64,000 nt of DNA, from contig NZ_AUJX01000007.1 in NCBI RefSeq assembly GCF_000424445.1, forward strand, positions 1 through 64,000, read 5' to 3'. The notes under the pieces were generated by a model. The model had not been told where the DNA came from and did not search any database. It saw only the letters and a program-made list of their open reading frames with translations. Positions 57,147 through 60,903 of the stretch are shown here, piece after piece. Every line of letters begins with the position of its first letter. The first letter of the stretch is position 1. The stretch comes from Oribacterium sp. NK2B42. Its GTDB lineage: Bacteria; Bacillota; Clostridia; Lachnospirales; Lachnospiraceae. The position numbers and the translations under genes were made by a program.

Positions 57147-58997
57147 ATGTTTGAAGGATTTTTACCGATTAACAAAAAGGATATGCTGGACAGAGGCTGG
57201 GATCAGCCCGATTTTGTCTATGTGTGCGGGGATGCTTACGTAGACCACTCAAGCTTCGGCGCTGCCATCATTTCAAGAATACTTGAGGCCCACGGCTACA
57301 AGGTTGCCATGCTTCCGCAGCCGGACTGGAATGATCCTTCCTCTGTTACTGAGTTTGGTGAGCCCAGACTGGGTTTCCTGGTTTCTGCCGGGAACATGGA
57401 TTCCATGGTGAATCATTATACCGTTGCGAAACGTCATCGAAAAACCGATGCTTACACCCCCGGCGGAGTAATGGGAAAGCGCCCGGACAGAGCTGCCACG
57501 GTTTACTGTAACCTCATCAGAAAAACCTATAAACATACCCCCATCATTATCGGAGGTATCGAGGCCAGTCTCAGAAGGCTTGCCCACTACGATTACTGGT
57601 CCGACAGCATTCGCCGCTCCATCCTTCTGGACAGTGGAGCCGATCTCATTTCCTACGGAATGGGAGAGCACAGCATCGTTGAGATAGCGGATGCTCTTAA
57701 CTCAGGACTTCAGGTCAAGGACATTACCTGGATTCCGGGCACGGTTTATAAGACGCGTCATGAGGATGAAATCTATAATGCCGTTAGGCTTCCGGATTTT
57801 GAAGAGATAAAGCGCAGCAAGCGGAAATATGCCGAGAGCTTTGCCACCCAGTACAGAAATACAGATCCTATAAGCGCAAAACGAATATATGAATGCTATG
57901 ACGGCGCCATGTTTATAGTTCAGAATCCTCCTGCCGCACCTCTTACGGAAATGGAAATGGATGATGTTTATGCCCTGCCTTTCATGAGAGCATGGCATCC
58001 GGTTTACGATAAGGATGGCGGAATCCCTGCTTTTGGAGAGATCAAGGAAAGCATCACCCAGGCCAGAGGCTGCTTCGGTGAATGCAATTTCTGCGCTCTC
58101 ACCATGCACCAGGGGCGAATCGTCCAGGTTCGTTCCCATGAAAGCGTGCTGGAGGAAGCTAAGCAGATAACTAAGGATCCTGAGTTTAAGGGGTATATCT
58201 TTGATGTGGGAGGTCCCACTGCGGAGTTCCGCGGTCCTGCCTGTGACAAGCAGCTTAAGCACGGTGCCTGTGTCAATAAAAAATGCTTATGGCCGGAACC
58301 CTGCAAAAATCTCAAGGTCGACCACTCTGACTATGTGAAGATGCTTAGAGAGGTAAGGTCGCTTCCGGGAGTCAAAAAGGTATTTGTCCGCTCAGGTTTC
58401 AGATTTGACTATCTCATGGCGGATTCCAACAAGGAGTTCCTGAAGGAGATCTGTAAATACCATGTTTCAGGGCAGATGAGGGTGGCTCCCGAGCATGTTT
58501 CCGATAATGTTCTGAAGGAGATGGGGAAGCCTGGTGTTAATGTCTACAATTCCTTTGTAAGGGAGTTTGAGAAGATAAACCGGGAGCTGGGGCTTAATCA
58601 GTATATCGTTCCATATCTTATGTCGAGTCATCCGGGGTCGAGGCTTAAGGATGCCATTACTCTTGCGGAGTACATCCGTGATATGGGTTATATTCCGGAG
58701 CAGGTGCAGGATTTTTATCCTACGCCGGGGACTGTTTCGACAACCATGTACTATACGGGGCTCAATCCTCTCACCATGGAGGAGGTTTATGTTCCGAAGA
58801 ATCCGCATGAGAAGGCCATGCAGCGTGCACTTATACAGTATAAGAAGCCGGAGAACTATGAGCTTGTGAAGGAGGCTTTGCTCCGGGAGCACCGGGAGGA
58901 CCTCATCGGGTTCGGGCCCGAATGTCTCATACGGCCGAGGAAGCAGAAGTCTCAGAAGCCCGACGGCCGGCCATATAAAAAGGGCAATGGCCGTTAG
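57147..58997 (+). CDS. YgiQ-family radical SAM protein
   Basis: A 616-residue radical S-adenosylmethionine enzyme of the YgiQ family. The N-terminal domain GGDAYVDHSSFGAAII-type start (CGDAYVDHSSFGAAIISRIL) and IIIGGIEASLRRLAHYDYW are characteristic. The cluster motif is CFGECNFC with Cys309, Cys313 and Cys316, followed by GGPTAEF and the MRVAPEHVSDNVLKEMGKP and DFYPTPGTVSTTMYY blocks. Widely conserved, reaction unknown. A basic C-terminus ends the protein. A weak purine-rich sequence precedes the ATG. It ends four bases before a long palindromic element. Confidence 0.94.
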   Translation: MFEGFLPINKKDMLDRGWDQPDFVYVCGDAYVDHSSFGAAIISRILEAHGYKVAMLPQPDWNDPSSVTEFGEPRLGFLVSAGNMDSMVNHYTVAKRHRKTDAYTPGGVMGKRPDRAATVYCNLIRKTYKHTPIIIGGIEASLRRLAHYDYWSDSIRRSILLDSGADLISYGMGEHSIVEIADALNSGLQVKDITWIPGTVYKTRHEDEIYNAVRLPDFEEIKRSKRKYAESFATQYRNTDPISAKRIYECYDGAMFIVQNPPAAPLTEMEMDDVYALPFMRAWHPVYDKDGGIPAFGEIKESITQARGCFGECNFCALTMHQGRIVQVRSHESVLEEAKQITKDPEFKGYIFDVGGPTAEFRGPACDKQLKHGACVNKKCLWPEPCKNLKVDHSDYVKMLREVRSLPGVKKVFVRSGFRFDYLMADSNKEFLKEICKYHVSGQMRVAPEHVSDNVLKEMGKPGVNVYNSFVREFEKINRELGLNQYIVPYLMSSHPGSRLKDAITLAEYIRDMGYIPEQVQDFYPTPGTVSTTMYYTGLNPLTMEEVYVPKNPHEKAMQRALIQYKKPENYELVKEALLREHREDLIGFGPECLIRPRKQKSQKPDGRPYKKGNGR

Positions 58998-59000
58998 TCC

Positions 59001-59316
59001 GTAGGCCGGGGCCGGTGGGCATCCATTTGAATGCGAGTCGCCTCGTCAGAAAAATCTAAAATCAGACCCCTAAGAACCACTAGGCCCTTAACAAAGAAAG
59101 AATCCTTACGGATTCTTTTTTTGCGCTCAAAGCCGCGCGGCTCCCAAGATTAAAAAAACAAATCTTGGGCAGCAATGTCAGAGTTCTTTTTATAACAACT
59201 CTGACTTGGCGAGGGGGCTAAGGAAAAAGGAACCAAGTGGTTCTAAGGGGTCTGATTTTGATTTTTCATGACTCGGCTCAACGCATTCAAATGGATGCCC
59301 ACCGGCCCCGGCCTAC
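59001..59316. repeat. Long palindromic element, copy B, with structured insert
   Basis: A 316-bp intergenic element. The outer 35 bases (59001-59035) are the exact reverse complement of 59282-59316, and pairing continues imperfectly to 59081/59236, giving arms of about 81 bases. The loop (59082-59235) holds three hairpins: a terminator (59097-59122), CCCAAGATT/AATCTTGGG (59143-59169) and GTCAGAGTT/AACTCTGAC (59177-59205). Copy A at 42963 shares the arms but lacks this insert. It begins 4 bases after the YgiQ stop codon. No open frame is inside. Confidence 0.88.
59097..59122 (+). terminator. Terminator inside palindromic element B
   Basis: AAAGAATCC and GGATTCTTT pair around TTAC, followed by TTTT. 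It would terminate the YgiQ transcript within the element. Confidence 0.85.
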
Positions 59317-59493
59317 TCATCTACCATCTGAACTGTTCCAAAATCAAAGGAAATCTGAAAAGTTTTGGTAAGGTTTTAGAGCCTCTCCTCATGGTACTAT
59401 ATACGTACTAAAAGGGGAGGTTTGCTTTATCCGACCGGCAATAGGGTAACATTTTCACAGTACACCTTTTATTACGAGGAGTCGGATGTCAGC

Positions 59494-60903
59494 ATGATGA
59501 ATAATATGAAGAATTACAAGAAATATTTACATAAAATCACTGCCGGTATGATGGTGGCGGTTATGTCAACATTATCCATATCATCTACAGTTCTTGCGGA
59601 CAATAAGGTTTCCGTGGTCATTTCAGAATACGGGCCTTTGAGTGCACAGATGGGTGAAACTGAGGCTGCCGTGGCAAATGAGGGGCTGGAGGTTTCGGTT
59701 TCAGGAACCGGTTCTTCAGCAGCTTCACAGACCTCAGAAGGTGCTCAGGCGACAGCTGCCACTGCTCCAGACGCAAACCAGGCTGCTCAGATTTCGGAAA
59801 CATCGGCTGCAGCAGGCCAGGCTGTTCAGACTTCAGAAACAAGCGGCACTCAGGTTGCGGAAACAGCTTCAGGAACTGAAAACTCTCTGTATTCGGCACC
59901 TACCGCAGAATCAGTTCAGGTTTCAGGGTCTACAGCAGCACCTGACCGGGCTGCCGTTACTGTTCAGTCCGCAGATTCTGCAGCAGCTGAATCCGGTCAG
60001 ACTTCCGGAGCAGTTCAGTCAGCAGATTCTTCAGCATCAGCAGTCGCTGAAGCCGCAGCTTCAGAAGCTCAGACCGGCAACTACTTCCAGTCTGCAGCTA
60101 CAGGTTCAAAATTTGTAAAGACTGCCCTTACAGCAACACCTGATGTAAATGCAAACTTCATGATTCTTGTGGATGCGGATTCAAACCTTATTGTGGCAGA
60201 GAAGAATGGGGAATCAAAGATGTACCCTGCATCCATGACCAAGGTCATGACCCTTCTTGTTGCATGTGAGAACATTACCGATCTTGATCAGGAAGTGGAG
60301 ATAACAAGCGATATCATTGATTATGTCAATGATAATGACGCTTCAAACTGTGGCTTCAAAGCAGGGGAGATCGTAACCGTTAAGGATCTTTTATATGGTC
60401 TTATTCTTCCTTCCGGAGCTGATGCGGCTCTTGCTCTTGTGAGACTTATCGCCGGCTCCGAAAAGCAATTCGTAAATCTCATGAATCAGAAGGCTCAGGA
60501 GCTTGGTATATCAGCAACAACTCACTATACCAACAGTACCGGTCTTTACAATGATAACCATTACACTACAGCAAAGGATATGGCATTGGTCATGAAATAT
60601 GCTATGACAAATCCTTACGCAAGTGCAATTCTCTCAACAAGAAACTACACAACCAAAGCCAGCAACAAGCATAGTTCCGGAATCAGTTTCTCAAACAAAT
60701 TCCTGACCCGCATAGATACCCAGTCCACCGGCGGAAAGGCGCTTATGGCGAAAACCGGTTATGTTTCAAAAGCCGGCAACTGTGCGGTATCCTCCTTCAC
60801 CGGTCCAAGCGGATCACATTATATCTGCGTTACAGGAAAAACCTCCGGAGCATGGAATGTGGTCTATGCCCACGCTGAGCTTTACAAGCAATACGGAAAA
60901 TAA
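59494..60903 (+). CDS. Serine-type D-alanyl-D-alanine carboxypeptidase (S11, DacA-like)
   Basis: A 469-residue exported penicillin-binding protein that removes the terminal D-Ala of peptidoglycan. A signal peptide (ITAGMMVAVMSTLSIS) is followed by a very long Ser/Ala/Thr/Gln-rich linker of about 150 residues, then the S11 domain: SxxK in PASMTKVM (Ser247, Lys250), SGAD (Ser307) and KTGYVSKAG (Lys420). The C-terminal domain of DacA is absent or short. ATG 59494 is preferred over the frame's TTG 59422 because GAGGAG lies just upstream. The disordered linker may span the wall. Transcription probably starts in 59317-59460. Confidence 0.92.
   Translation: MMNNMKNYKKYLHKITAGMMVAVMSTLSISSTVLADNKVSVVISEYGPLSAQMGETEAAVANEGLEVSVSGTGSSAASQTSEGAQATAATAPDANQAAQISETSAAAGQAVQTSETSGTQVAETASGTENSLYSAPTAESVQVSGSTAAPDRAAVTVQSADSAAAESGQTSGAVQSADSSASAVAEAAASEAQTGNYFQSAATGSKFVKTALTATPDVNANFMILVDADSNLIVAEKNGESKMYPASMTKVMTLLVACENITDLDQEVEITSDIIDYVNDNDASNCGFKAGEIVTVKDLLYGLILPSGADAALALVRLIAGSEKQFVNLMNQKAQELGISATTHYTNSTGLYNDNHYTTAKDMALVMKYAMTNPYASAILSTRNYTTKASNKHSSGISFSNKFLTRIDTQSTGGKALMAKTGYVSKAGNCAVSSFTGPSGSHYICVTGKTSGAWNVVYAHAELYKQYGK

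What the first reader, a model, noticed from the sequence alone, without database searches (positions are those of the whole stretch)
59001..59316. A long palindromic element with three hairpins in its loop
The outer 35 bases are a perfect inverted repeat and pairing extends to 81-base arms, enclosing a 154-base loop with a terminator and two 9-bp stems. It has no reading frame. As DNA it would form a large cruciform; as RNA, a rod with a three-hairpin head. This fits a non-autonomous mobile element or a structured-RNA gene not known to me. It is the strongest candidate here for something undescribed.
Basis: partly seen in the sequence, partly recalled or inferred. Interest (0 to 1): 0.85.

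Follow-up and report, generated by a model that had tools for sequence, protein, structure and literature searches.

The report
Dispersed hairpin repeat at gene ends
It is one of many copies of an apparently undescribed long DNA hairpin scattered through Oribacterium genomes, sitting just behind genes where transcription stop signals belong; its two arms change together as DNA, without the looser pairing typical of working RNAs.

Summary
The palindrome is real and is one copy of a dispersed repeat family, here called A, seen in our searches only in the window's genus, Oribacterium. A's core is ~231 nt; the six copies that keep both outer ends measure 279-283 nt. In the window A carries a second, independent ~80-nt repeat, B, which splits its inner stem, so the "three-hairpin head" is two elements nested. 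In 80 aligned copies 94% of pair cells are Watson-Crick over 71 pairs, 65 of them with two or more pair types. G.T (80) is no commoner than A.C (114), against 31:7 in tRNAs of the same genome. Orientation towards the upstream gene is unbiased (23:19). So the hairpin is kept as DNA, or on both strands, and does not look like a one-strand RNA gene. In 58 of 60 copies a gene ends beside it, median 22.5 nt away. Sister species have ordinary terminators, or no A, at several of these sites. Best reading: a non-autonomous mobile foldback repeat that lands at gene ends and serves as a two-way terminator. Movement and termination are inferred; no target duplication and no mobilising enzyme was found. 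New family, known kind.

The parts
59001..59092 (.). Left arm of A (outer 35 bases perfectly paired; continues up to the ...GGCCCTTAAC where B is lodged)
59093..59172 (+). Element B, an ~80-nt repeat with its own copies elsewhere (AAAGAATCC..GGATTCTTT and CCCAAGATT..AATCTTGGG hairpins), lodged in A and splitting A's inner CCCTCGCCAA/TTGGCGAGGG stem
59173..59316 (.). Tip hairpin, conserved one-sided bulge and right arm of A
59173..59209 (.). Tip hairpin of A (CAATGTCAGAG..CTCTGACTTGG); occurs in several discrete variants among copies
59216..59237 (+). Conserved unpaired one-sided bulge GGCTAAGGAAAAAGGAACCAAG; low variation in its first half although the stems vary
59049..59063 (.). A-rich tract left of the G+C-rich inner stem (T-tract on the minus strand)
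59254..59267 (.). T-rich tract GATTTTGATTTTTC right of the G+C-rich inner stem; with 59049-59063 this is the layout of a two-way intrinsic terminator
   Evidence: layout as described in PMC1852404 passages
59072..59072 (.). Conserved A x A mismatch, left member (partner 59245); the A/A column pair holds in 79 of 80 aligned copies
59326..59339 (-). Probable decayed outer end of the full-length element (GGAACAGTTCAGAT read inwards, 3 mismatches to GTAACAGTTCAGCC, at the usual 27 nt from the core); no left counterpart with 4 or fewer mismatches
57147..58997 (+). Upstream gene: radical SAM protein with Radical_SAM_N and DUF3362; its stop codon ends 3 nt before the arm
59497..60903 (+). Downstream gene: D-alanyl-D-alanine carboxypeptidase (Peptidase_S11); start codon chosen by eye, the open frame begins at 59422

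Best explanation
59001-59316 is a copy of a non-autonomous, dispersed foldback DNA repeat (A) of Oribacterium, carrying a second repeat (B) in its inner stem. A lands immediately behind stop codons, where it replaces or flanks the native terminator. There its A-tract / G+C-rich stem / T-tract layout should end transcription arriving from either side. The pairing of its arms is conserved because A is copied, converted or moved as a folded DNA hairpin, not because of a one-strand RNA product. Shown here: copies, structure, covariation, lack of wobble preference, gene-end location, sites without A in sister species. Inferred: that it terminates transcription, that it moves in trans by an unidentified enzyme, and that folding is needed for the move.
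For: Copies: 56 blastn matches in the own genome, partial and opposite-strand ones included; 9 of 17 congeneric genomes match, 10 of 17 by covariance model, 0 in G001-G003, G008, G009, G015, G016. Structure: 5322 of 5641 cells WC, 71 pairs, 65 with >=2 and 54 with >=3 WC types; 373 both-side cells against 87.5 in shuffles. DNA level: G.T 80 v A.C 114; on the strand transcribed from the upstream gene 54 v 58; G011 set 59 v 39; tRNA control 31 v 7. Context: 60 copies (orthologous ones included): 42 tandem, 16 convergent, 2 divergent (one orthologous locus); median distance 22.5 nt on stop-codon sides, 118 nt on start sides; orientation 23:19. In G011, 34 of 38 scored copies have a gene end beside them, medians 13 and 84 nt. 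Sites without A: the window's own site in five congeners, two of which show a hairpin-plus-T terminator there; at L002 and L024 a sister species holds a small terminator; at L004 and L017 the native one stands beside A. Entropy 0.25 bits in the A-tract against 1.03 in the adjoining G+C-rich stem. Six copies with both outer ends are all 279-283 nt long.
Against: No target-site duplication at the six A copies that keep both ends (1-3 of 8 bases equal), and sister sites differ from A sites by more than A alone, so clean insertion is not shown. No mobilising gene found: Y1 transposases do not track A (G013 has A but no Y1 match; G001 and G002 have Y1 but no A), and the one full-length IS66 gene in the own genome has no end with fewer than 4 mismatches in its fetched flanks. 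The T-tract can pair with the A-tract, and the simple terminator scan found only two sites, both on the minus strand. In G011, 4 of 38 scored copies lie between divergent genes. G011's 59:39 leans mildly towards wobble. No transcript data. Gene-end location could reflect tolerance rather than function.
Confidence: 0.6

Rival explanations
1. A is a structured RNA (an sRNA or a rod-like 3'-UTR RNA) conserved for RNA folding.
For: Strong covariation and conserved unpaired bases: the bulge, and the A x A mismatch in 79 of 80 copies. In G011 G.T exceeds A.C, 59:39.
Against: Over the 80-copy set G.U is not favoured over A.C (80:114; sense strand 54:58), while tRNAs of the same genome give 31:7. No orientation bias, 23:19 and 11:9. 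No Rfam match above gathering score. Copy numbers differ widely between congeners.
Confidence: 0.1
2. A spreads without any transposase, by template switching or gene conversion between hairpins: existing terminator hairpins are overwritten or extended by copying from other A hairpins.
For: Tip and stem segments look like blocks exchanged between copies (judged by eye); at 12 orthologous site pairs 84 base pairs changed on both sides and stayed WC, 31 changed on one side. A lies inside A (L013, L015, L204) and between GTAACAGTTCAGCC ends. No target duplications; native terminators replaced at some sites.
Against: The outer ends at fixed distances and the uniform 279-283 nt of six copies look like a defined unit. 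Arrival at sites with no hairpin is not explained.
Confidence: 0.3
3. A is a classical MITE of the DDE transposase that also moves the short GTAACAGTTCAGCC-ended palindromes of the same genome.
For: 24 of 160 sides of A have that end with <=3 mismatches, 19 of them at 23-27 nt left or 26-29 nt right; 0 in distant windows and 0 with the reversed pattern. Of the seven non-A elements scored, L091 and L105 have 8 of 8, L092 7, L099, L109 and L114 6.
Against: The six A copies with both ends have 1-3 of 8, and one non-A element, L097, only 3 of 8. Most A sides lack the end. No autonomous copy was identified.
Confidence: 0.25
4. A is inert and persists only where it does little harm, behind genes; its terminator layout is accidental.
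For: Divergent (promoter) regions hold few copies, 2 of 60 and 4 of 38, as tolerance alone would predict.
Against: In many tandem contexts it abuts the upstream stop codon instead of lying anywhere in the gap; native terminators are missing where A is present at some sites; A/T tracts are more conserved than the stem between them.
Confidence: 0.25

Closest known systems
REPIN / REP sequences mobilised by RAYT (Y1) transposases
   Same: Dispersed extragenic hairpins with conserved parts and compensatory changes in the variable stem, interpreted as mobile DNA (PMC3116915, passages seen).
   Different: A is about 231-283 nt, much larger; its conserved part is the mid and tip region while the base varies; A presence does not follow Y1 genes. 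Oribacterium has a separate palindrome flanking a Y1 gene.
MITEs (TIR-bounded non-autonomous elements)
   Same: Short, non-coding, multi-copy, inverted-repeat, some copies with a common end GTAACAGTTCAGCC and uniform length.
   Different: No target duplication at the A copies with both ends; complementarity over essentially the whole length; most copies lack recognisable ends.
Repeat-built intrinsic terminators (uptake-signal hairpins in Neisseria and Pasteurellaceae)
   Same: Dispersed repeats doubling as terminators at gene ends; A-tract and T-tract on the two sides of two-way terminators (PMC1852404, passages seen).
   Different: Those are paired 9-11-nt signals; A is one long element with conserved bulges.
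Bacterial stem-loop repeat families (BOX, RUP, ERIC, bcr1 and others)
   Same: Families of stem-loop-containing intergenic repeats (PMC2267715, passages seen).
   Different: None of those named in the passages seen is from this genus; no sequence relation was tested.
Integron attC sites (recalled)
   Same: Variable-sequence stems with conserved unpaired bases, which in attC are read as folded single-stranded DNA.
   Different: A is dispersed behind genes, not in cassette arrays; no integrase or attC consensus was tested.

Membership tests
MITE | Multiple dispersed copies, no coding capacity | tested here: met
MITE | Common terminal inverted repeats | tested here: inconclusive
   24 of 160 sides with <=3 mismatches to GTAACAGTTCAGCC, 19 of them at the usual distance; most sides lack it
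MITE | Target-site duplication | tested here: not met
   1-3 of 8 bases equal at the six A copies with both ends; none clear at six sites compared with sister species
MITE | Autonomous partner with the same ends | tested here: inconclusive
   Contig-end elements share the end but run off the contigs; the full-length IS66 locus shows no close match to it
REPIN/RAYT system | Hairpin repeats with compensatory arm changes | tested here: met
REPIN/RAYT system | Co-occurrence with, or flanking of, a RAYT gene | tested here: not met
   G013 has A but no Y1_Tnp match, G001 and G002 the reverse; no A match in the nine regions around longer Y1 matches that were examined
Structured RNA gene | G.U tolerated over A.C on the functional strand | tested here: not met
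   80:114, sense strand 54:58; G011 alone 59:39; tRNA control 31:7
Structured RNA gene | Known Rfam family | tested here: not met
Structured RNA gene | Transcript | not testable with these tools
   no expression data
Two-way intrinsic terminator | Position right behind stop codons | tested here: met
   58 of 60 copies; 34 of 38 scored of 40 in G011
Two-way intrinsic terminator | G+C-rich stem flanked by A-tract and T-tract | tested here: met
   a simple pattern scan limited to loops of 3-8 found only minus-strand sites
Two-way intrinsic terminator | Stops transcription | not testable with these tools
   needs reporter or RNA-seq
Integron attC | Cassette array, integrase, attC core sites | not tested
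   only the dispersed location was seen

The most novel reading that the evidence does not exclude
A is a mobile element recognised as a folded DNA hairpin (conserved bulge and A x A mismatch, freely varying stem) that spreads by taking over transcription terminators. Its arms co-vary because only well-refolding copies can move, so it would be a terminator-swapping mobile hairpin with an unknown recombinase.
Probability: 0.25. Interest if true: 0.78.

Novelty: new variant of a known kind. Interest (0 to 1): 0.52.

Why it matters
Covariation is normally read as proof of a structured RNA. This family is a case where strong covariation comes without a clear wobble preference or strand bias, so it belongs to DNA or to two-strand hairpins; the G.T against A.C test used here is simple and could help sort ncRNA predictions. 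If the terminator reading holds, dozens of gene ends in some genomes have had their stop signals replaced or doubled by a repeat family, which would link mobile DNA to the wiring of operons.

Tried and rejected
Known RNA family: Rfam at gathering score found nothing in the whole window; with permissive E-values only four sub-threshold hits of unrelated kinds. Phage, plasmid or virus origin: no match in plasmids or phages, none for one exact pattern in viral contigs. Y1/RAYT as mobiliser: distribution does not fit. IS66 as mobiliser: one full-length gene and a fragment, no close ends. Target duplications at A: none convincing. An ACGGAC motif left of A (8 of 82 against 0-1 in controls) was not explained. 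Wider spread: the model found A in 1 of 299 genomes from 298 genera of the family, the own genome (only 10 candidates per genome were scored, and it gave 10 matches in the own genome where the fuller search gave 31, so weak copies elsewhere could be missed). The named-genome pattern scan asks for exact matches; it returned only the three named genomes, so congeners with more diverged copies may have been missed. Papers: five searches, four with listings, one empty (60); I saw listings and, in three papers, passages, and none of that described this family.

Rows dropped and limits: of 82 extracted copies, L022 and L068 (shortened or interrupted) were left out of the alignment of 80. The 12 copies with B and one copy with an identical segment were left out of the 67-row model. 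Of eight sites queried for empty places, six were compared; L012 gave scattered pieces and L022's two sides lie about 190 nt apart in G012, so the place is filled. The 60 copies include orthologous ones and are not independent. In one search, 2 of 40 copies lay at contig edges and were not scored for context; three of the 40 are also in the first set (L128, L207, L208). An earlier count said 78 pairs; the right number is 71.

Full report
What is in the window. The inverted repeat is real: arms 59001-59084 and 59233-59316, 85% complementary, the outer 35 bases perfect, folding better than all 100 shuffles on either strand. It has no reading frame of 80 aa or more and no Rfam match at gathering score. 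It lies between a radical SAM gene (57147-58997, stop codon 3 nt before the arm) and a D-Ala-D-Ala carboxypeptidase gene.

It is a family. The 316 bp, used on its own genome (G000, 3.79 Mb, 95 contigs), finds a series of copies that share query positions 1-88 and 173-316 but lack 89-172. The missing middle has its own separate copies. So the window copy is element A (core about 231 nt) with element B (59093-59172, 80 nt) lodged in its inner stem. B sits at the same point in L181, L182, L185-L189, L202 and L204, and at a second point in L203 and L209. At the window's own site the sister genome G012 has A without B. Five congeners (G004, G005, G006, G007, G013) show no A behind this gene, though G004's contig ends about 25 nt after the stop codon; in G005 and G006 a hairpin followed by a T-run stands there, and G004's short stretch resembles G006's. 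G008 and G016 also lack A there but have other sequence downstream. G011 has an A with very different arms in the opposite orientation. In G010 the contig begins inside the element and its middle is missing.

Where it occurs. Of 17 genomes of the genus, 9 match by blastn and 10 by covariance model, with zero in seven relatives and many copies in G000, G010, G011, G012 and G013. Model counts include opposite-strand matches of the same palindrome; in the printed, capped list I count 15 places in G000 and 50 in G011. An exact pattern of the conserved bulge in the named-genome collection hit 18 stretches from three genomes only: Oribacterium sp. KHPX15, the Oribacterium MAG RUI013 and the Lachnospiraceae MAG S9M_St_59. 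One genome per genus across the family: 1 of 299, the own genome (limited sensitivity).

Structure and covariation. In 80 aligned copies, 71 consensus pairs, 5322 of 5641 cells are Watson-Crick; 65 pairs show at least two and 54 at least three Watson-Crick types. On 67 copies without B, 41 of 48 pairs have changes on both sides (shuffle mean 20.4) and the covariation score is 0.360 against 0.111 (such shuffles do not correct for relatedness). Unpaired positions are far from free: columns 136-146 of the bulge have a mean entropy of 0.31 bits against 0.90 in outer stem columns 20-32, and the A x A mismatch holds in 79 of 80 copies.

RNA or DNA? A pair that drifts one step becomes G.T or A.C. RNA selection keeps G.U and rejects A.C; the same mismatch read on the other strand is reversed. 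Tallies: 80 G.T to 114 A.C; on the strand transcribed from the upstream gene, 42 tandem copies, 54 to 58; in a G011 set of 40, 59 to 39, a mild lean the other way. In 29 distinct tRNAs of the same genome: 31 to 7. Copies are also oriented either way to the upstream gene, 23:19 and 11:9. So the pairing is kept as DNA or on both strands. Two-way terminators would also predict this, so termination and DNA-level copying cannot be separated by this test.

How arms change. Among 12 orthologous site pairs in G000, G010 and G012 (L005 used twice), 84 base pairs changed on both sides and stayed Watson-Crick, while 31 changed on one side. The picture is two-sided: three site pairs are nearly identical (L005/L151, L006/L174, L015/L166), the others differ more, with tip and stem segments occurring as a few recurring variants. 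That points to replacement or conversion by other copies more than to slow stepwise compensation; I judged the blocks by eye. L006/L174 differ only by one A-T to T-A swap in both arms.

Place and likely work. Of 60 copies with long flanks, 42 lie between tandem genes, 16 between convergent and 2 between divergent genes (one orthologous locus). The median distance is 22.5 nt on sides where a gene ends and 118 nt on sides where one starts (genes called by a simple longest-frame rule). In G011, of 38 scored copies, 20 tandem, 14 convergent, 4 divergent, medians 13 and 84 nt. At six sites I compared a G000 copy with a sister species lacking it: at L002 (G012) and L024 (G010; G012 has A there) the sister has a small terminator in place of A; at L004 and L017 the native terminator stands beside A and is kept, and at L017 G012 retains a stretch like A's left edge; L007 has a short hairpin in G012 and a shorter element in G010; L009 shows no clear hairpin. 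A itself has an A-tract, a G+C-rich stem and a T-tract, the layout that PMC1852404 describes for two-way terminators (passages). I infer termination; no expression data were available, and the simple scan does not support the plus strand.

Ends and mobility. At 23-27 nt left and 26-29 nt right of the core some copies carry GTAACAGTTCAGCC: 24 of 160 sides with at most 3 mismatches, 19 of them at these distances; 0 in distant windows, 0 for the reversed pattern. The six copies with both ends are 279-283 nt long. The same end bounds short palindromes, of which L091 and L105 have perfect 8-bp target duplications, four others 6-7 of 8 and one 3 of 8. GTAA ends with 8-bp duplications recall the IS66 family (from memory). 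Yet the six full-length A copies have only 1-3 of 8 bases equal, the one full-length IS66 locus lacks close ends, and Y1 transposases do not track A. So movement is inferred from distribution, the mover is unknown, and hairpin-to-hairpin copying without a transposase is a serious rival.

Novelty. Nothing in the listings of five paper searches or in the passages of three papers describes it. The closest published behaviour is that of REPINs, for which compensatory changes in the hairpin are reported (PMC3116915, passages). I call A a new variant of a known kind.

Noticed in passing
L278:1787-1829 and 2738-2781, also 1016-1059 and about 34-75 (G000:C1 about 191,000-193,800): A Y1 transposase gene of RAYT type (L278:1977-2726, Pfam Y1_Tnp) has a palindrome TCCACCGGGGACGGTTCTCGCCGGCGAGAACCGTCCCCGGTGGA on both sides, with two further copies nearby: a REP/RAYT-like set in Oribacterium.
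   Followed up: partly
L091:1501-1561, L105:1501-1561, also L092, L097, L099, L109, L114: Short GTAACAGTTCAGCC-ended elements (54-378 bp) with 8-bp target duplications of 8, 8, 7, 3, 6, 6 and 6 matching bases (L091, L105, L092, L097, L099, L109, L114); 51 matches without mismatch to GTAACAGTTNRGCC in the own genome.
   Followed up: partly
window 59093-59172; L028, L033-L048 and others: Element B, an ~80-nt repeat with an AAAGAATCC..GGATTCTTT hairpin and a CCCACGATT..AATCGTGGG hairpin, alone near genes or inside A.
   Followed up: partly
L012 right flank (query 1845-1892): Another dispersed repeat (around AGAAAATGCAAGGGA), with many matches in G012 and G010.
   Followed up: no
L279, L281, L284, L271: A Y1 transposase gene of RAYT type sits next to a YifB/ComM-like gene (name from memory) in G000, G012, G011 and G014.
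   Followed up: no
left flanks of A, e.g. L007, L154, L155, L157, L172, L187: ACGGAC occurs just left of A in 8 of 82 copies against 0-1 in control windows; unexplained, possibly part of the moving unit.
   Followed up: partly
L013, L015, L204: A inside A: an outer A whose tip is replaced at CTACGA by a complete inner A, at several loci.
   Followed up: partly
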